From Spirochaetia bacterium (GTDB lineage: Bacteria; Spirochaetota; Leptospiria; Leptospirales; Leptonemataceae): a stretch of DNA of 44,687 bases. The notes below the pieces were generated by a model that worked only from the letters and a program-made list of their open reading frames with translations, was not told the origin of the DNA and ran no database searches. How positions within the stretch are numbered: the stretch's first letter is position 1; every line of letters begins with the position of its first letter. Location: contig JAIOPQ010000100.1 of the NCBI GenBank assembly GCA_021413825.1, positions 1 through 44,687 of the forward strand. The letters are read 5' to 3'. The position numbers and the translations under genes were made by a program. Below are positions 9,552-34,683 of this stretch, piece after piece.

Positions 9552-10109
9552 ATGCCGAAAATTGTCGATCACGATGCACTTCGCATCGACCTGTTGGATC
9601 GTAGTTTTGAACTCTTTGCGCGGCGCGGATATGAGGGATTAACCATCCGACAGATAGCCGAGGAGCTTGAACTTTCAACGGGCAGCCTCTATCACTACTT
9701 TGATTCAAAGGAGGCCATCTTTGTCCAAATGCTCGCTCATGTGAGTCAGACAGATGTAGGTTTGGCCGTGGGATCGCTACCGAATGATGCGGGCCCGATT
9801 GAGCGAATCGAAATTCTCCTGGATTTCATAGCAATGCGCGAGAAGCATTTCCAGAATCTGCTCTTCATTGTTCTGGACTATTTTAGACATCCAGGCGCAG
9901 ACCAAAACGTTATGCGGCAAACAATACGCTATTACCGGCAGGCAATCAGCATCAATCTCAGAATCGACGATGAAGGCAGGGCTGCAACGCTACTGAGTCT
10001 GATTATTGGGCATCTGTTGCAGCGATTGCTCGATCCGCAATTCGCTTTTGACAGAAAGAGCAATTTCGGGAAAGGAATCATAAGTCAATTTGCGGAGGCA
10101 AGAATATGA
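9552..10109 (+). CDS. TetR/AcrR family transcriptional regulator
   Basis: 185 residues. The N-terminal DNA-binding domain is clear: LDRSFELFARRGYEGLTIRQ, then the recognition region LSTGSLYHYFDSKEAIF (~48-64). The rest is a helical ligand-binding and dimerisation domain without recognised specificity. It has a strong ribosome site (GAGGAG, eight bases upstream) and a near-consensus promoter with an imperfect palindrome over the likely start. Its TGA overlaps the ATG of alkB by four bases, so it most likely represses its own operon and is relieved by an alkane, alcohol or fatty-acyl ligand; the ligand is inferred from context only. Confidence 0.92.
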   Translation: MPKIVDHDALRIDLLDRSFELFARRGYEGLTIRQIAEELELSTGSLYHYFDSKEAIFVQMLAHVSQTDVGLAVGSLPNDAGPIERIEILLDFIAMREKHFQNLLFIVLDYFRHPGADQNVMRQTIRYYRQAISINLRIDDEGRAATLLSLIIGHLLQRLLDPQFAFDRKSNFGKGIISQFAEARI

Positions 10110-11260
10110 TAAAGTATCTAAAGTATTTGTTTACGCCAGTTCTAATGAGCTGTGTTACACTGGGGATTCTACTCGGTGGCGGCTGGATGTGGCTTGGCAT
10201 TTCTGCTATTTTCGTTTTCGTGGTTGGCGGTGATGCGCTATCGGGCGATGATCTGAGCAGACCTGAATTTGCGCACAAGTGGATTCTCAATCTGAATTTG
10301 TATGCAACTCTACCCGTGCTGATAGCCATGCTTTTTGCTCTAGCCTGGATGTGCGGAAACGGCAGAAGCGACGCATTTGGATTCGGCGTTTGGATTCAAA
10401 CTCTGACGGGCTACGACATATTCGCCGCACGGGCGGCAACATCGGCCATGGACCTTGTGGGTGCTGTATTAAGCGTGGGCCTCGCTTCTGCAGGATATGG
10501 GACTAACGTTGCGCATGAACTAACCCACCGAACTTCCGATCCAATTGCCATGATCACTGGTCGGTGGCTCCTGGCTCTAGGTTGCCAGGCGGACTTTTCA
10601 ATTGAGCACGTATACGGGCATCATTTGCACGTTGCCACAGCCAAAGATCCGGCAACTGCGCTGCGCGGGGAAAATGTGTATTCGTTCATCATTCGTTCCA
10701 CGTTGCAAGGTCATAAGAGCGCGTGGAATCTAGAGAGCAATCGCTTGATAAAACGCGGATACGGAGTCTTTTCGTGGCGCAATCGCATGCTTCGCGGTTA
10801 TGCGATGAGTTTGTCAGTGGCCGCTGGATTCGCAGTTCTTGGGGGGAGCATCGGATTACTGGTCTTCCTGGGCCAATCTGCAGTTTCAAAATCGATCCTG
10901 GAGATTGTGAATTATATGGAGCATTATGGGCTTGTGCGGGTCCCCGGCCAACTGGTCATGCCAAGGCATTCTTGGAATACCAACAAATGGATGAGTTCCC
11001 TTGTCCTTTATTCCCTAACACGACATTCTGCTCACCATGAAAAAGGAAGTCTTCCCTTTTACGAACTCAGTCCGTACGCCGATGCGCCAACTATGCCCTT
11101 TGGATATCTGACAACCATTGTCATTGCGATGGTTCCGCCCCTTTGGAACCGCGTAATGGACGACAAGCTTGCCGATTGGGACAGGCGCTTTGCAACCGCA
11201 GAAGAACGTGCGTTAGCCTCTGGAACCACGGGAGCTACGCTGAGGCCCGAACATGTTTAG
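10106..11260 (+). CDS. alkB: AlkB-family integral-membrane alkane 1-monooxygenase
   Basis: 384 residues with about six hydrophobic segments. The di-iron histidine boxes are all present: HELTHR (137-142), EHVYGHH (167-173), and RHSAHH (306-311); the AlkB-specific NYMEHYG (269-275) is also there, with RHSWNTN next to it. This set distinguishes alkane hydroxylases from fatty-acid desaturases. The enzyme would oxidise the terminal methyl of alkanes or related chains in the inner membrane, using O2 and two electrons. Start ATG at 10106 overlaps the tetR stop. The usual rubredoxin partner is absent from the operon; a plant-type [2Fe-2S] ferredoxin follows instead, overlapping by eight bases. XylM-like substrates remain possible. 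Confidence 0.9.
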   Translation: MIKYLKYLFTPVLMSCVTLGILLGGGWMWLGISAIFVFVVGGDALSGDDLSRPEFAHKWILNLNLYATLPVLIAMLFALAWMCGNGRSDAFGFGVWIQTLTGYDIFAARAATSAMDLVGAVLSVGLASAGYGTNVAHELTHRTSDPIAMITGRWLLALGCQADFSIEHVYGHHLHVATAKDPATALRGENVYSFIIRSTLQGHKSAWNLESNRLIKRGYGVFSWRNRMLRGYAMSLSVAAGFAVLGGSIGLLVFLGQSAVSKSILEIVNYMEHYGLVRVPGQLVMPRHSWNTNKWMSSLVLYSLTRHSAHHEKGSLPFYELSPYADAPTMPFGYLTTIVIAMVPPLWNRVMDDKLADWDRRFATAEERALASGTTGATLRPEHV

Positions 11261-17603: not shown

Positions 17604-18818
17604 ATGCCATTGAAAGTAGCAATCACAGGAATTGGTCAAACACGTACCCGCTTGAAACGGAAGGACGTCAACTTCCCGGAAATGATGGGAGAGGCAGCTC
17701 AGCTGGCACTTGCAGATGCTGAACTGACGCCGGATGACGTTGATCTGGTCCTATTCGGCAGCGGCCCTGAAATGTTTGAAGGAGTTGGTGAACCGGATCT
17801 CTGGGGCGCTGACAATACGTTTGGCGTTTTCAAACCCCATTATCGCATCCAAACCGGCGGAACCGTAGGAGCATCCACTACGATTGCTGGTTGGTACATG
17901 GCTGCCTCCGGTTTGTTCGACACGATCCTGGTTGTAGCCGGAAATAAACTGGGTGAGTCTTCCGTTCAGAAAGGTTTGAGCCTGGTTTATTCACCTACTA
18001 TGGGCCGCGATTTTGCCGCAGGTGCACCTTCAGCGGTTGCAAATCAGACGCGGATTTATATGAATAAGTATCCCGCGGCAAAAGAAGAGCATTTCGCCCG
18101 GATTGGAACGATGATGCGCAAAAACGCCCTGAACAATCCGAATGCTCAATTGAAACTGCCACAGATCACAGAAGAGTTGATGCTCAACATGCCCTGGCTT
18201 TCCACTCCGTTCCGCCTGTTAGACTCATGCCCCACGAGCGATGCTGCATGTGCGATGGTTCTTCAATCGGAGAAACTCGCAGATAAAGTTGAACGACCCA
18301 AAGCCTGGATTCAGGCATGCTCTGCTGTCTCTGATGGAGTGAACTATATTAATCGGGATTGGTCTGATCCAATCGCCCTCAAGAAAGCAGCAGCGAATTG
18401 TTACAATGCAGTTGGAATAACTAAGCCCCTTGAAGAACTGGACGTTGCGGAAATCTATGATGCATTTACAAGCCAGCATTTGATCTGGTATGAGGGTCTC
18501 GGCTTCTGTGAGCCTGGCCGTGCTGGTCCAGATCTAGTGGAGCCGCGCGTAACAAGCATGACGGGAAAATTGCCAGTGAATCCGAGCGGTGGTGTGCTTT
18601 CTAATAATGGAATTGGCGCATCGGCTATGATCCGTCAGGCAGAGGTTGCGCTTCAAATCATGGGTCGAGCCGGCGACAGACAGGTCCCCGGTGTGGAAGT
18701 TGGGCTTGCGCAAGGTTGGGGCGGAGCAATTCAATTTCACACTGTTATGATTCTGAGTGCAGACAAAGACATTCAGAAATCCTTCAAGAAAAGTGCGGAC
18801 CGTAAGGCCGCACGTTAG
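17604..18818 (+). CDS. Thiolase-fold protein lacking the catalytic Cys and His (SCP-x/Ltp2-like)
   Basis: 404 residues, thiolase fold like SCP-x thiolases. Where thiolases have the nucleophile C-A-S-G, this has TGGTVGAST (84-92), and there is no Cys at all before residue 209. The usual GHPxGA His loop reads GGVLSNNGIGAS (329-340), so that His is also gone. SDAACAMVL (212-220) and EIYDAFTS (283-290) keep the remaining core, with Tyr285 in the position of the H/Y-D-x-F motif. This recalls Ltp2-type retro-aldolases of sterol side-chain degradation, thiolase-fold enzymes that need a DUF35 partner. A DUF35 protein follows directly. Aldolase function is inferred; a non-catalytic scaffold is the alternative. 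Confidence 0.8.
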   Translation: MPLKVAITGIGQTRTRLKRKDVNFPEMMGEAAQLALADAELTPDDVDLVLFGSGPEMFEGVGEPDLWGADNTFGVFKPHYRIQTGGTVGASTTIAGWYMAASGLFDTILVVAGNKLGESSVQKGLSLVYSPTMGRDFAAGAPSAVANQTRIYMNKYPAAKEEHFARIGTMMRKNALNNPNAQLKLPQITEELMLNMPWLSTPFRLLDSCPTSDAACAMVLQSEKLADKVERPKAWIQACSAVSDGVNYINRDWSDPIALKKAAANCYNAVGITKPLEELDVAEIYDAFTSQHLIWYEGLGFCEPGRAGPDLVEPRVTSMTGKLPVNPSGGVLSNNGIGASAMIRQAEVALQIMGRAGDRQVPGVEVGLAQGWGGAIQFHTVMILSADKDIQKSFKKSADRKAAR

Positions 18819-18879
18819 GCGATCACAAGTTAGTATTCCGATTCCGATTGGAAAATTATAGGGCAACACAGGAAGTTCC

Positions 18880-19329
18880 ATGGAAGTAAAAGTACTCGAA
18901 GGCAAAATAGAAAATGACTATAAATGGAATCCAGGCCAATCGGTTGGTCGGTTCCTCACGCAAATTCGCGAAAAGGAAATCATCGCAGTTCGTTGCACCA
19001 AGACCTCCAAGGTCTTTTTGCCGCCGCAATCCTGGTCACCCTACGGCAACATTAAGATGGATCGATACGTTCCGATTACGGGAGAGCCAACGCTCGGCGC
19101 GGGCACAATCGTTTCAACTTTACCCTGGAATGCTCCGGAAGGAATCACTCCTCCATACATGTTAGCGGGAATTTCTTATGCGGGCGTAGACAGTGACCTC
19201 ATTCACCTTGTTGTTGCTCCTGAAGCAAAACTCAAATCCCTAAAGCCTGGCGCAAAGCTCCGTGCAATCTGGAAAGAAGAACGTACTGGGACCATGCGCG
19301 ACATTCAATACTTCGAGCCAGTGGAATAA
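18880..19329 (+). CDS. DUF35 OB-fold protein with degenerate zinc ribbon
   Basis: 149 residues. The arrangement is the DUF35 one: an N-terminal helix (YKWNPGQSVGRFLTQIRE), a zinc-ribbon position, then an OB-fold from about residue 75. Only one of the four zinc cysteines remains (RCTKTSKVFLPPQSWSPYG), so the ribbon probably binds no metal. DUF35 proteins bridge thiolase-family enzymes to neighbours and hold acyl-CoA chains. It ends DIQYFEPVE, and the domain fused to the next gene ends DIQYFRPLKD; both also share the helix pattern YKW...G...RF, so they look like paralogs. A ribosome site AGGAAG precedes the ATG, and the synthetase starts three bases after its stop. Confidence 0.85.
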   Translation: MEVKVLEGKIENDYKWNPGQSVGRFLTQIREKEIIAVRCTKTSKVFLPPQSWSPYGNIKMDRYVPITGEPTLGAGTIVSTLPWNAPEGITPPYMLAGISYAGVDSDLIHLVVAPEAKLKSLKPGAKLRAIWKEERTGTMRDIQYFEPVE

Positions 19330-19332
19330 ATC

Positions 19333-21333
19333 ATGACTTCAGATATCGTATCACCTTTCAAAACTATTACCGAAATGATGGCTGACCGGGCCCATAATTT
19401 CCCGGACAAACCGTATCTGATTTTTGGCGAGAAGACCTATACATATTCTCAGTTTGATCAGATCACGTCAAAGGCTGCAGGTGCTTTTAAGAAGCTGGGC
19501 GCAAACGCCGGCGATCGCATTGCGATTCTGATTCCTAACTCTGATGACTTTCTTTTCTGTTATTTTGGCGCGATGAAGGCCGGTTGTGCAGCGGCAACCC
19601 TCAACACACTACTGAAGGCGGAAGAACTTGAGTTTATCATAAATGATTCCAAGGCAACAGTCCTCTGCACCACACCGCATTACTTGAAGTTGCTTGCATC
19701 AGTGCGGGAAAATCTGACAAACATAAAACACATCATTCTGACTGAACCCGCGGAAACCGGAAATTCAGTGATTCTCGGTAATTTGATCACTGCAGCTGAA
19801 CCGTTTACGCATAACGTTCAGGCCGAAGACGACGCTGCAATGATCTACACATCAGGAACTACCGGTCATCCCAAAGGTGTGGTGCTAACCCATGCAAACA
19901 TCCTATACAATAGCTATGTTGCACCGCGATTCATTGATTTGCAAAAAGACGATGTTTCCCTCTGTATCATGCCGTTGTTTCATGTGAACGCACAGATCGC
20001 TTCCATGATGGCTACTATGCAGGCTGGAGCAACCGTGGTTTTGGAAGAAATGTTCAAGCCACGCAGTTTCATTAAGACTCTCAAGAAATACAAGTGCACA
20101 ACGTTCAGCGGCGTGCCCACCATCTACAGTTATCTAAACGACATGAAAGAAGCAGAAGGGGAGGACTTGAGCTTCCTAAAAGCATGCATTTGCGGTGCTG
20201 CCCCCATGCCAGTCGAAGTATTTCAAACCTTTGAAAGAAAGTTTGGCGCAAAGATCATCGAAGGCTACGGACTTTCGGAAGGTACATGCGTTTCTTCGCT
20301 AAATCCAATCAACGGTGTACGAAAAATTGGTTCCATTGGCATTCCAATCGACGGCCAGGAAATGGGAATCTGGGACGATGATGGAAATTCGATGGCAGTC
20401 GGTCAAATCGGCGAAATTGTAATAAAAGGCCCAAACGTAATGAAGGGTTATTACAACAATCCAGAAGCAAGTGCAAAGGCTCTCTCAAACGGCTGGCTGC
20501 GTACTGGTGATCTGGGATATCGCGACCAGGACGGCTATTACTTCATTTCCGGAAGAAAGAAGGAAATGATCATCCGTGGCGGGGAGAATATCTATCCGCG
20601 GGAAATTGAAGAAGTGCTTTTTGAAATGCCGGATGTCCAGGATTGCGCAGTTGTCGGTTTGCCTGACAAGAAGTACGGCGAAGAGGTTGCAGCGTTCATC
20701 ATTCTAAAAGGTGGATCGAGCGCGGATGAAAAATCAATTAAGAGTTTCTTGCGTACTAAAATTGCCGACTTCAAACGTCCCCGCATCATTGAGATTGTAA
20801 CCGACCTTCCGCGTACGGCTACAGGCAAAATTCAGAAAAACAAAATTGTAGAAGAACACGTTGGGAATATGCAGCTGATTTCCAAAGTAGATGGGAAGGT
20901 TCTGATTCCTTACAAATGGGTGTATGGAAAGGCGCTGGCTCGTTTCTATTCCGGAATGAAAGAAGAAGGCAAATTCTACGGAACGTATCGCAAAGGCTGC
21001 ACCCGTTGTAACGATGCTGTGCAATGTCCGCCCAAATCTTTTTGCGGCTTGTGTCATGAAGCTTGCGAAGACTGGAAGGAACTTCCAAATCGCGGCGTAC
21101 TTGAAAGTTTCACTACCGTTTACATGGAATTTCCTGGTCAACCAACCAAACCACCGTATACGTACGGGTACATCAAACTGGAAGGGGCTTCAACGCATCT
21201 CTATCACATGATCAGAGAAATTGAAGAAAAGGATATTCGTGTAGGAATGAAAGTTGAGCCCGTGTGGAGTCCGCTGGAATCACGCAAGGGCAATCTGTAC
21301 GATATCCAGTACTTTCGTCCGCTAAAAGATTGA
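19333..21333 (+). CDS. Acyl-CoA synthetase with C-terminal fused DUF35 zinc-ribbon/OB domain
   Basis: 666 residues, about 150 longer than usual. Residues 1-~507 are an ANL-family acyl-CoA ligase: YTSGTTGHPKG (172-182), GYGLSEGT, TGDLG, and the A10 lysine in PRTATGKIQKNK (K499). Residues ~515-666 form a DUF35 module with an intact zinc ribbon (C556-x2-C559, C571-x2-C574) and an OB-fold (~588-666). It would activate a carboxylate with ATP and CoA and pass the acyl-CoA within the complex formed with the preceding thiolase-fold and DUF35 proteins. I know of no described enzyme with this fusion, although I could not search. No frameshift is visible at the junction. Confidence 0.9.
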   Translation: MTSDIVSPFKTITEMMADRAHNFPDKPYLIFGEKTYTYSQFDQITSKAAGAFKKLGANAGDRIAILIPNSDDFLFCYFGAMKAGCAAATLNTLLKAEELEFIINDSKATVLCTTPHYLKLLASVRENLTNIKHIILTEPAETGNSVILGNLITAAEPFTHNVQAEDDAAMIYTSGTTGHPKGVVLTHANILYNSYVAPRFIDLQKDDVSLCIMPLFHVNAQIASMMATMQAGATVVLEEMFKPRSFIKTLKKYKCTTFSGVPTIYSYLNDMKEAEGEDLSFLKACICGAAPMPVEVFQTFERKFGAKIIEGYGLSEGTCVSSLNPINGVRKIGSIGIPIDGQEMGIWDDDGNSMAVGQIGEIVIKGPNVMKGYYNNPEASAKALSNGWLRTGDLGYRDQDGYYFISGRKKEMIIRGGENIYPREIEEVLFEMPDVQDCAVVGLPDKKYGEEVAAFIILKGGSSADEKSIKSFLRTKIADFKRPRIIEIVTDLPRTATGKIQKNKIVEEHVGNMQLISKVDGKVLIPYKWVYGKALARFYSGMKEEGKFYGTYRKGCTRCNDAVQCPPKSFCGLCHEACEDWKELPNRGVLESFTTVYMEFPGQPTKPPYTYGYIKLEGASTHLYHMIREIEEKDIRVGMKVEPVWSPLESRKGNLYDIQYFRPLKD

Positions 21334-27166: not shown

Positions 27167-27269
27167 GAATCCCATGTTTTGAGCCGTTTTGGGCCTGCGT
27201 CAATCCATTGAGTGGATATTCCCTGGAAGTTAATATTGACGCTCGCTCTTGCGGCGGCTTGTGTGCAGT

Positions 27270-28556
27270 ATGAACAATCCATACATTCTGGGCGGTGCCC
27301 AAACCGATTTTTCGAGGAACTGGAGCAAGGAAGGGAAGACCTTCATGTCCATGATGCGCGAAGTCGTTGAAGATGGTCTGGCTTCCGTCGGACTTGAATA
27401 TGAAGAAATCAAACGTTTGAATCAAGAAAACAAGGTCGCTGTATTTGTTGGGAACTTTGACGCAGAGCAATACACTCAACAGGGTCATCTTGGGGCTTTC
27501 TTAACAGAAGTGAATCCTGCATTTTACGGCGTGCCCGGTGCTCGCTATGAAGCGGCCTGCGCTTCCGGATCTGTCGCAATGGACGCAGCTGCAGCGCGTC
27601 TTCGCGGTGGCGACTACGAAGTTGCAGTGGTGCTTGGAATCGAGGTAATGAAGACAGTAAGTTCTACTGTGGGTGGTGATTTTCTTGGGACAGCTGCTTA
27701 TTATGAGAAAGAGGCCAAAGGAGTTCAGTTTCCATTTCCAAAATTGTTCGGCAGACTCGCTGACGTGATTGTTGAACGCGCACAGGGCGTGGGAGAGCAA
27801 CGTGTAATGGATGCACTTGCCGAGATCTCTAGAATCAATTACGCAAATGCAAAACTCAATCCGCTTGCCCAGACCAGAACCTGGTATATGAGCGAAGAGC
27901 AAGCTAAAGATCGTGGAAGCAAATACAATGCTGCCGTAGGCGGTCGCCTCTGCATTTCAGATTGTTCGCAAGTAACTGACGGTGCTGCAATTCTTGTAAT
28001 GGCAGCGCCAGCATACGCAAAACAATTCGCCCAAAAGAAAGGTGTTCCCATGAACAAGTTCGCGGTAATGCGCGGTTGGGGTCATCGTGTAGCACCAATC
28101 ACCTTTGAATCTAAAGTTGAAGAATCCAAGGGTAAGGATTTTATTCTTCCTTGGACTCGTCAGGCTGTCGTAGATGCCTACCGTCGCGCAAGCGTCGACA
28201 TCGATCAGATCGATGTGATTGAAACTCATGATTGCTTTACATCAAGCGAATATGCTGCCATCTCCGCATTTGGCCTGACAAAGCCAGGGGACGAGTATCA
28301 GGCTATTGAAGATGGTAAGATTGCCCTTGAGGGAGCTAAGAAACCAGGTAAGAAGCCTATCAATCCGTCGGGCGGGCTGATCGGTGCTGGTCATCCAGTG
28401 GGTGCGTCCGGGGTTCGCATGGGCTTGGACCTTTTCAAACAGGTCACCGGCCAGGCTGGCGAGTATCAAGTTCCGGACGCCAAGAACGGAATCATGCTCA
28501 ACATCGGTGGTTCTGCTACAACGAACATGACGTTCGTGATTGGTCGCGCAGAATAA
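27270..28556 (+). CDS. Thiolase, SCP-x type, with intact catalytic residues
   Basis: 428 residues from the ATG at 27270 (a TTG at 27249 would add seven). The nucleophile is Cys97 in EAACASGS, the HDCFTSSE motif holds the conserved His-Asp, and [14 protein letters not shown] is the normal catalytic His loop. It should cleave or form beta-ketoacyl-CoA, as in beta-oxidation. It contrasts with the thiolase-fold gene at 17604, which lacks these residues. No DUF35 or dehydrogenase is adjacent. Hairpin downstream; no clear promoter box identified in the 103-base divergent gap. Confidence 0.92.
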
Positions 28557-32985: not shown

Positions 32986-34683
32986 TCACGTCATTAATTT
33001 CGCCGGATTCAGGCTTCCGCCTGGATCCAACGATTTCTTAAGTGCATTCAATGTTTCCCAGGCAACCGGACCGACTTGCTTCTTGAAATGCTCGCGATGA
33101 TCTGATCCGACACCATGATGATGACTGATGTTCCCACCATGAGCAAGGATTGCATCGGAAACCGCTTCCTTCATGCGCATCCACTGGTCTACGGGCGCAT
33201 TTGAATCGACCGGAAACATGATCGTAAAATAGAGACAGGCGCCGTCGTGATAGCTGTGGCTTGCATGGCAAAGCCGCAAACTGTTAGGCATTTGCTTTTC
33301 CATTGCATCAAGCACAGCCTTATGTACTTCCATGCACTTGTCGTAAGGGACGGCGGTCTCCATGGTATCTACGCCCAATCCGTACTCCAATAAGTAGTTG
33401 CGGAGGAAGGGCATGTTGAATCGACCCTTAAGCCAATTTCTTCCCACTCCATTTCCGGCGAACATCCCTTTGTACTTTGGAGCCAAGCGCTTGAGTGCGG
33501 CTATTGCCGAGGTTGCATGCTCGCCATCCGATCCTGCGACCACAATGCATTTCTGGCCGCCAAGTCCATTAGCCTGTAGAACAATATTCTCAATCGAACT
33601 TTTTACGAACTTTTTTGATTTGGCGAGTAGCGAGGCATCGGCCTTGTGATTGATGATTCTTGAAAAAGACTGTAGCTGATTGGTCTCCTCCTCATCGCTC
33701 AGGCGCAACGTGGAAAAGGTAAACTCGGTTTGATTTGCGTGCCGAATGAAATCTAGACCAGCTTTGAAATTGGGGAAAAGAAATCCGCAGTACGATCTTT
33801 TTTCAGGAAGAGCGTGGATTTTTACCGTTACGCTGGTAATAATTCCGAGCGTTCCTTCGCTACCGCAAATAATCTGGTTCAGATCCGGACCTGTTGCACC
33901 CGCCGGAAAGTGCGTTGTCTCAAATAGGCCGCGAGGAGTAACCATTCTGATCGCAGCAATCACATCTTCAATTTTGCCATAACGATTTGACTGCTGCCCC
34001 GCACTGCGCGCTGCAACCCATCCACCAAGCGTAGAGTACTCAAATGATTGCGGGAAGTGACCCAGAGTATAACCGTGTTTCCCGAGTGCTGTTTCAAGAT
34101 CGGGGCCGTAAATCCCGGCTTCGAACGTTGCTGTTTGATTCACAGAATTCACGTTGATTAGCCTGTTCATCCGAGTAATATCGATGGTAAGAATTGCTTT
34201 CTTGCCCGCAGCTTTTGCTTCCACTCCGCCAACCACAGATGAACCGCCACCAAACGGAATTACAGCCCAGTTTCGTTGAACCGCAACCTTCAGGAGTTTT
34301 GCAATCTCGCTCTCAGTTTCCGGATAAACGACTGCGTCCGTATATGATTTGAGGAGATTGGAGCGAAGCCGCATTACATCATAGTAACTCTTGCCGGCAG
34401 AATGCAGCACGCGTTCCCGCATGTCGTTTTTTACCCGATTCTTTCCCACAATCTTCTGCAGCGCCGTTAGGTTTGCACCTTTGATTCTGGATTCAGGCAA
34501 TCTGAGATCCGTTATGCGCAAGGAAGGTGTGATGGCCTCAGCAAGATGAAGGCGATGGCGTATGAATGTGAGTAGCGAGCCGATTTTATCTGCGTAGAAG
34601 AAATCGCTGTCTAGCGAACCCCAGGCATTCCAGCGAAGGTTTTCACGCTTGGTATTGATCTGCTTTAATTCAGTGTATAACAT
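32986..34683 (-). CDS. Alkyldihydroxyacetonephosphate synthase-like FAD enzyme (ether-lipid synthesis)
   Basis: 565 residues. The FAD-binding region (PFGGGSSVVGG, near residue 145) and GHFPQSFEYSTLGGWVAARS followed by NRYGKIEDVI are nearly those of eukaryotic AGPS. GSEGTLGIIT and the C-terminal HASHSYHDGACLYFT and SHHHGVG carry the active-site His and Tyr/His residues of AGPS. The reaction replaces the acyl chain of acyl-DHAP with a fatty alcohol, making the ether bond of plasmalogen precursors. Its start is five bases after the inositol-phosphatase stop. A D-lactate/glycolate-type oxidase is the main alternative, but the HHHG and STLGGW motifs favour AGPS. Confidence 0.88.
   Translation of the reverse strand: MLYTELKQINTKRENLRWNAWGSLDSDFFYADKIGSLLTFIRHRLHLAEAITPSLRITDLRLPESRIKGANLTALQKIVGKNRVKNDMRERVLHSAGKSYYDVMRLRSNLLKSYTDAVVYPETESEIAKLLKVAVQRNWAVIPFGGGSSVVGGVEAKAAGKKAILTIDITRMNRLINVNSVNQTATFEAGIYGPDLETALGKHGYTLGHFPQSFEYSTLGGWVAARSAGQQSNRYGKIEDVIAAIRMVTPRGLFETTHFPAGATGPDLNQIICGSEGTLGIITSVTVKIHALPEKRSYCGFLFPNFKAGLDFIRHANQTEFTFSTLRLSDEEETNQLQSFSRIINHKADASLLAKSKKFVKSSIENIVLQANGLGGQKCIVVAGSDGEHATSAIAALKRLAPKYKGMFAGNGVGRNWLKGRFNMPFLRNYLLEYGLGVDTMETAVPYDKCMEVHKAVLDAMEKQMPNSLRLCHASHSYHDGACLYFTIMFPVDSNAPVDQWMRMKEAVSDAILAHGGNISHHHGVGSDHREHFKKQVGPVAWETLNALKKSLDPGGSLNPAKLMT

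What the first reader, a model, noticed from the sequence alone, without database searches (positions are those of the whole stretch)
17604..21333. Cys-less thiolase + degenerate DUF35 + acyl-CoA synthetase fused to a second DUF35
Three tightly spaced genes look like one enzyme complex. The thiolase-fold protein has no Cys before residue 209 and has lost the GHPxGA His. The stand-alone DUF35 has one of four zinc Cys left. The synthetase carries an extra DUF35 module with intact CxxC...CxxC. The two DUF35 parts end DIQYFEP and DIQYFRP and share the helix pattern, so one is probably a copy of the other with divided roles. Established: Ltp2-type thiolase-fold retro-aldolases act with DUF35 partners on acyl-CoA. 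Inference: a channelled acyl-CoA activation and C-C bond-forming or cleaving machine. I know of no published description of the synthetase-DUF35 fusion.
Basis: partly seen in the sequence, partly recalled or inferred. Interest (0 to 1): 0.78.

Follow-up and report, generated by a model that had tools for sequence, protein, structure and literature searches.

The report
Aldolase complex tethered to acyl-CoA ligase
Three neighbouring genes of an uncultured relative of Leptospira encode a thiolase look-alike without its catalytic cysteine, a small docking protein, and an acyl-CoA synthetase fused to a second, related docking module; with a fourth protein encoded elsewhere in the genome they likely form one complex that would break carbon chains by an aldol-type cut, tying the activating and the cutting step of a breakdown pathway together.

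Summary
The cysteine, histidine and zinc-ligand losses are real and family-wide. But the trio is incomplete: relatives across bacteria and archaea carry a four-part module, two thiolase-fold subunits (THL1, THL2) plus two DUF35 modules (a, b). THL1 lies on other contigs in this genus. The two DUF35s are old paralogues, not a local copy; DUF35b alone became fused to the synthetase, apparently once, in this class. THL2 has the tyrosine of studied thiolase-fold retro-aldolases (YDxF) where thiolases have histidine, and glycine at the nucleophile position. Gene neighbours in relatives (two acyl-CoA dehydrogenases, MaoC hydratase) suggest a CoA-dependent breakdown route ending in a retro-aldol cut, as proposed for actinobacterial Ltp3-Ltp4. 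The two studied DUF35 fusions tether a hydratase; here it is a ligase. In one lineage the ligase half has lost its motifs (28% mutual identity) while DUF35b stays at 79%. Activity, substrate and complex formation are inferred. New variant of a known kind.

The parts
17604..18818 (+). THL2: thiolase-fold subunit, likely the catalytic one; Gly86 at the nucleophile-Cys position, Tyr285 in the YDAF motif, Asn335 in the former GHP stretch
   Evidence: Thiolase_C_1 129 bits
17859..17861 (+). codon of Gly86, aligned with the nucleophilic Cys of SCP2-thiolase
   Evidence: HMMER alignments; G in 75 of 75 aligned THL2 rows (5 of 80 gapped)
18456..18458 (+). codon of Tyr285 (YDAF), aligned with His of HDCF; equivalent motif to TcLtp2 Y294DHF and CtSal Y302DCY
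   Evidence: Y in 75 of 76 aligned THL2 rows (4 of 80 gapped)
18880..19329 (+). DUF35a: stand-alone OB-fold docking protein with degenerate zinc ribbon (only C39 kept)
   Evidence: PDB 3irb (DUF35) E 2.7e-5; grouped with first-position DUF35s of other phyla; no Pfam family at E<=0.01
19333..21333 (+). acyl-CoA synthetase (ANL) fused at its C-terminus to DUF35b
   Evidence: AMP-binding 318 bits, AMP-binding_C 77 bits, OB_ChsH2_C 54 bits
19333..20874 (+). ANL synthetase domain, residues 1-514, with A3, A5, A7, A8 and A10 motifs intact (motif names recalled)
20875..20928 (+). low-confidence, probably flexible linker, residues 515-532
   Evidence: pLDDT below 50 in the model
20929..21330 (+). DUF35b domain (helical arm, zinc ribbon, OB fold), residues 533-666
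20998..21054 (+). CxxC...CxxC zinc ribbon of DUF35b (C556, C559, C571, C574)

Best explanation
The three genes encode a Cys-less thiolase-fold protein (THL2), a DUF35 protein (DUF35a) and an acyl-CoA synthetase carrying a second DUF35 (DUF35b), and with a second thiolase-fold protein (THL1) encoded elsewhere in the same genome they are predicted to form one heteromeric retro-aldolase that would cut 3-hydroxyacyl-CoAs with Tyr285 as the likely base instead of by cysteine thiolysis. Shown: the gene set, the residue swaps, the four-part module in other phyla, the separate ancestry of THL1 and THL2 and of the two DUF35s, and the co-occurrence of the parts in this order. Inferred: that THL1 and THL2 pair as a heterodimer capped by the two DUF35s; that the direction is catabolic (ligase, then acyl-CoA dehydrogenases, then MaoC hydratase, then retro-aldol cut); that the substrate is a CoA ester hard to process by ordinary thiolysis, such as a beta-branched acid; and that fusing DUF35b to the ligase keeps the activating enzyme on the aldolase by a flexible tether. 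One possible reason for the tether: retro-aldol cleavage leaves an aldehyde or ketone rather than a shortened acyl-CoA, so after any further oxidation a ligase is needed again.
Confidence: 0.6

Rival explanations
1. Same complex run in the forward, biosynthetic direction: the tethered ligase makes an acyl-CoA whose enolate is added to an aldehyde or ketone, giving a 3-hydroxyacyl-CoA (aldol condensation).
For: A ligase tethered to the C-C enzyme fits a donor-supplying role; the window also holds other lipid genes (patatin, desaturase, cyclopropane-synthetase-like).
Against: Acyl-CoA dehydrogenases and MaoC hydratase accompany the module; studied relatives work in the cleaving direction.
Confidence: 0.15
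2. THL2 is a Cys-less acyl-CoA decarboxylase or a DUF35-dependent acyl transferase (PhlABC-like), not an aldolase.
For: PhlC and SCP2-like proteins match in sequence and fold; TbSLP, a relative without the SCP2-thiolase Cys residues, was reported to decarboxylate malonyl-CoA very slowly (quoted in PMC12329534).
Against: The His-to-Tyr change of the studied aldolases is near-invariant in THL2; CtSal did not act on malonyl-CoA. Whether a PhlA-like partner lies near was not searched.
Confidence: 0.15
3. The fused synthetase is mainly a structural or regulatory carrier for DUF35b; its ligase activity is unconnected with the aldolase.
For: In 7 of 53 fusion proteins (and G010) the ligase motifs are gone while DUF35b stays conserved.
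Against: Of 61 aligned fusion rows (53 proteins plus 8 locus copies), 34 are motif-intact, 13 have only minor changes by my reading, 2 are partial and 12 degenerate; the window's copy is intact. Unfused ligases lie directly upstream of THL1 on the same strand in Lokiarchaeota L037 and L047, 44-45% identical to the window's ligase.
Confidence: 0.2
4. Three-protein complex of THL2, DUF35a and the fusion only, with the DUF35s as a recent copy.
For: They are the three adjacent genes here.
Against: THL1 kept in 15 of 16 genomes with the system, one of them found only by looking beside THL2; deep split of the two DUF35s.
Confidence: 0.05

Closest known systems
Ltp3-Ltp4 heteromeric aldol-lyase of actinobacterial C24-branched sterol degradation
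   Same: Two thiolase-fold subunits beside two DUF35 modules in the Streptomyces-type loci; neighbouring groups in the THL1, THL2 and DUF35 trees; proposed retro-aldol chemistry. That the Streptomyces loci correspond to Mycobacterium Rv3521-Rv3523 is recalled, not tested.
   Different: No ligase fusion seen there; the DUF35s are fused to each other; NCBIfam cut-offs not reached by the Leptospirales proteins tested.
Ltp2-ChsH2(DUF35), PDB 6ok1
   Same: Thiolase fold, Tyr in YDxF, DUF35 as the link to another pathway enzyme.
   Different: Two identical aldolase subunits; the linked enzyme is a MaoC hydratase, not a ligase; acid Tyr344 and the His of YDHF have no counterpart here.
Sal-Shy(DUF35), PDB 9myr
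   Same: Gly at the nucleophile position, YDxF Tyr, DUF35 fused to another pathway enzyme.
   Different: Catalytic Cys304 absent here (Ala287); fusion partner is a hydratase.
SCP2-type thiolase (6hrv, 6hsj)
   Same: Best sequence match in PDB and same fold.
   Different: The three tested thiolase residues (nucleophile Cys, His of HDCF, His of GHP) are replaced.
Benzoylsuccinyl-CoA thiolase BbsAB and PhlABC
   Same: Thiolase fold working with a DUF35-type subunit (named as DUF35 complexes in PMC12329534).
   Different: Cys-dependent chemistry and no ligase fusion (both recalled).

Membership tests
SCP2-type / canonical thiolase | thiolase fold | tested here: met
SCP2-type / canonical thiolase | nucleophilic Cys | tested here: not met
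   Gly86 in the window; Gly in 75 of 75 aligned THL2 rows
SCP2-type / canonical thiolase | His of HDCF and His of GHP | tested here: not met
   Tyr285 and Asn335
Ltp2/Sal thiolase-fold retro-aldolases | Tyr base in YDxF and Gly at the Cys position | tested here: met
   Y285, G86; motif equivalence through HDCF
Ltp2/Sal thiolase-fold retro-aldolases | known general acid (Tyr344 of Ltp2 or Cys304 of Sal) | tested here: not met
   Ala287 and Asn335; the Tyr344 match rests on spacing only
Ltp2/Sal thiolase-fold retro-aldolases | retro-aldol activity; co-purification with DUF35 | not testable with these tools
   needs protein work
Ltp3-Ltp4 heteromeric aldol-lyase | two thiolase-fold subunits plus two DUF35 modules | tested here: met
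   adjacent in relatives; in the window's genus THL1 is on another contig
Ltp3-Ltp4 heteromeric aldol-lyase | NCBIfam subfamily cut-offs (PRK08313, PRK07937; that these are the Ltp3/Ltp4 subfamilies is recalled) | tested here: not met
   window THL2 353 of 514 bits for PRK08313; THL1 of L161 186 of 419 bits for PRK07937
Ltp3-Ltp4 heteromeric aldol-lyase | requirement for branched sterol side chains | not testable with these tools
   substrate unknown
ANL acyl-CoA synthetase (fusion, residues 1-514) | Pfam domains and A3-A10 motifs | tested here: met
DUF35 / OB_ChsH2 (fused DUF35b) | PF01796 above cut-off and four zinc Cys | tested here: met
   54.4 bits against 27.1; C556, C559, C571, C574; zinc-ribbon model PF12172 not reported at E<=0.01
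DUF35 / OB_ChsH2 (stand-alone DUF35a) | PF01796 or PF12172 above cut-off | tested here: not met
   no Pfam family; kinship rests on 3irb, E 1.7e-9 to DUF35b and the tree
DUF35 / OB_ChsH2 (stand-alone DUF35a) | four zinc Cys | tested here: not met
   only C39

The most novel reading that the evidence does not exclude
A self-reloading aldolytic breakdown machine: a THL1-THL2 retro-aldolase with an acyl-CoA synthetase hung on it through DUF35b, so that each shortened, CoA-free product of the aldol cut is re-activated on the same assembly. In a sister lineage the ligase has decayed into a catalytically dead body kept only to carry the DUF35b module.
Probability: 0.25. Interest if true: 0.78.

Novelty: new variant of a known kind. 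Interest (0 to 1): 0.6.

Why it matters
To my knowledge aldolytic beta-oxidation is documented almost only for steroid side chains in Actinobacteria and Proteobacteria. A conserved four-part module of this type in Leptospirales, Acidobacteria, sulfate reducers and Lokiarchaeota would mean a much wider route for CoA esters that thiolases cannot cut. The synthetase-DUF35 fusion suggests that DUF35 can dock different pathway enzymes onto the same kind of core (a hydratase in the two studied cases, a ligase here), and the lineage with a decayed ligase half is a ready natural experiment for what DUF35b does on its own.

Tried and rejected
Rejected: the trio as a complete complex (THL1 found elsewhere); the DUF35s as a local duplication; zinc as the clean divider of roles; a known-subfamily label by NCBIfam (below cut-offs). 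Led nowhere: promoter and terminator scan (no more sites than in shuffles); plasmid search to name the actinobacterial homologue (only 'thiolase domain-containing protein' and the like). Details of counts: the strict motif script flagged 25 of 61 fusion rows as degenerate; 13 of these (P0013, P0016-P0027) differ by my reading in only a few letters (P0019 and P0020 most), so I count 12 rows (7 distinct proteins P0046, P0048-P0053 plus 5 locus copies) as truly degenerate. The identity contrast set those seven against 29 intact proteins chosen by me out of 53 (left out besides the seven: P0003, P0013, P0015-P0027, P0038, P0047). No selection test (dN/dS) was run. Only two of the five genomes of genus g12 (G016, G018) had their fusion sequence examined. 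In one search the single non-Tyr THL2 row is L075, whose slice runs through the partner gene. The trees used 147 DUF35 rows and 70 THL rows from 36 selected of 80 loci plus the window's two. In the DUF35 tree the labels 'first' and 'second' position are not each one group over all phyla (6 and 7 changes); the claim of old paralogues rests on the branches that hold the window's two domains. Open frames were judged on the listed rows only. One search scored 8000 candidates and listed 120.
Full report
OBSERVATION. The three ORFs are present as described. The thiolase-fold protein has Cys only at 209, 216, 239, 266 and 302. Aligned with SCP2-thiolase, the nucleophilic Cys falls on Gly86, the His of HDCF on Tyr285 and the GHP stretch on SNNGIGAS. 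These states are family-wide: in 32 aligned rows, window included, G86, Y285 and C216 are invariant. Across THL2s of 80 loci, Gly86 is in 75 of 75 aligned rows and Tyr285 in 75 of 76. A second, SCP2-type thiolase in the same window (27249-28556) shows a Cys stretch, HDCF and GHP in the same places.

ORGANISM AND DISTRIBUTION. Those relatives of the fusion that carry a source's name are Leptospirales, Leptospiraceae or other Spirochaetes MAGs. The window is contig C111 of a 4.49 Mb, 94% complete genome. The DUF35b search matches 24 of 48 genomes of the class: 17 strongly (15 in frames of 627-783 aa; two in frames of about 325 aa, of which G025 is seen to be cut by a contig end), and 7 genomes of another family with short, unfused DUF35 frames. 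In the phylum-wide DUF35 search of 392 genomes the listed frames above 600 aa all belong to that class (not all matches listed).

THE MISSING FOURTH PART. Around the 80 best THL2 loci from named genomes the usual order is THL1-THL2-DUF35a-DUF35b. Of the 47 loci with at least 4 kb on both sides, 44 have a second THL adjacent, 41 two DUF35 domains and 38 both; an acyl-CoA dehydrogenase lies within 4.5 kb on the same strand in 23, MaoC in 9, a ligase in 12. The upstream neighbours in the window are instead a 125-aa protein without a Pfam family and a patatin. THL1 is in the genome all the same: residues 1-289 at the end of contig C64, residues 310-376 at the end of C26, probably one gene cut by the assembly. 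In 30 genomes of the order DUF35b matches strongly in 16 (a 17th, G021, only at 2.4e-4), THL2 in the same 16, and THL1 (E<=1e-60) in 14 of these and none of the other 14. Looking only beside THL2 in G010, a diverged THL1 is there too; the remaining exception, G006, is 67% complete. The 14 genomes without the system were not searched at a laxer cut-off. THL1 is on another contig in all three genomes of the window's genus and next to THL2 in the other twelve, so the gene moved and was kept.

ANCESTRY. THL1 and THL2 profiles match at 100% probability, E 1.7e-40, and the two fall in separate groups in a 70-row tree (96/98). In a 147-row DUF35 tree the window's DUF35a groups with first-position DUF35s of a few other phyla and the first half of the actinobacterial double DUF35 (97/95); the fused DUF35b groups with second-position DUF35s of the same loci (97/82) and the second half (96/92); the fused DUF35s form one group (100/99). 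Over all phyla the position labels are not single groups (6 and 7 changes). For the window's branches the two DUF35s are thus older than the fusion, and the fusion looks like a single later event.

PATHWAY. Next to the fusion lie MaoC and two acyl-CoA dehydrogenases in G001, G024 and G025, then an SDR in G024 and a similar-looking frame in G025 that was not scanned; in G003 MaoC lies beside DUF35a. Across the 30 genomes MaoC (E<=1e-20) is in 14 of 16 with the system and 2 of 14 without. ACADb is in 15 of 16 and 3 of 14 at a best-hit cut of 1e-90 that I set afterwards, and in 15 of 16 and 7 of 14 at the call's 1e-60. These genomes are relatives, so the counts are not independent events. In the window's own genome MaoC is on C123 and ACADb on C13 with an ACADa-like gene close by. 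The set ligase, dehydrogenase, MaoC hydratase, thiolase-fold aldolase mirrors steroid side-chain degradation as told in PMC6678751 (passages), which also describes Ltp3-Ltp4 as a heteromeric aldol-lyase after whose cut thioesterification is mandatory. The Leptospirales substrate is unknown; a beta-branched acid is my guess.

THE TETHER. In the two studied complexes DUF35 links the aldolase to its hydratase (PMC11321319, passages). Here it is fused to a ligase, with an 18-residue low-confidence linker. The ligase motifs of the window's copy are intact. In 7 of 53 fusion proteins, in a lineage that includes genus g12 (G016 and G018 examined), and in G010, the ligase half has lost its motifs: among the seven the mean pairwise identity is 28% for the ligase half and 79% for DUF35b, against 69% and 68% among 29 intact proteins. 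So DUF35b stays conserved where ligase catalysis is gone. This supports DUF35b as the working link to the aldolase and weakens any claim that ligase activity is always part of the machine.

PRINT. Searches for DUF35 with thiolase (17 papers), DUF35 with acyl-CoA synthetase and fusion (3, from the listing unrelated), OB-fold/Zn-ribbon/AMP-binding terms (0), Leptospira terms (9) and heteromeric aldolase terms (7) listed no paper whose title or shown start of abstract describes a synthetase-DUF35 fusion; most subscription papers are not held.

VERDICT. A real, conserved, heteromeric thiolase-fold system, probably a retro-aldolase related to Ltp3-Ltp4, in which the second DUF35 was fused to an acyl-CoA synthetase: new variant of a known kind.

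Noticed in passing
L010, L013, L162, L163, L154; P0046, P0048-P0053: Fusion proteins whose synthetase half has lost its ATP/AMP-binding motifs while DUF35b stays conserved.
   Followed up: partly
L170, L171, L173 (family f6 of the same class): Unfused DUF35-THL1-THL2-DUF35 quartets without a ligase fusion, a more distant version of the module.
   Followed up: partly
window 27249-28556: SCP2-type thiolase with a Cys stretch, HDCF and GHP (PRK06289, 592 bits) followed by a cyclopropane-synthetase-like gene and an FAD oxidoreductase; a similar-looking thiolase lies near the quartet in L163 (16346).
   Followed up: no
window 9552-11260 and 32986-34683: TetR regulator next to a fatty acid desaturase; FAD-linked oxidase perhaps of the alkyl-DHAP-synthase kind (recalled): the window is rich in lipid genes.
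   Followed up: no
L044, L046, L051-L053, L057, L060-L062, L074, L077-L079, L081, L083, L085: A subgroup of THL2s has TCG or SCG, with a Cys one residue before the thiolase nucleophile position; its chemistry may differ.
   Followed up: no
for example G053:C52, G161:C128: DUF35 domains in open frames of about 480 aa in other Spirochaetota families, perhaps another DUF35 fusion type.
   Followed up: no
L014: A contig filed under Candidatus Hydrogenedentota whose THL1 and THL2 group with Leptospirales bin L015; possibly misbinned.
   Followed up: no
L154 (G010): No stand-alone DUF35a seen between THL2 and the fusion, so one DUF35 may be enough there.
   Followed up: partly
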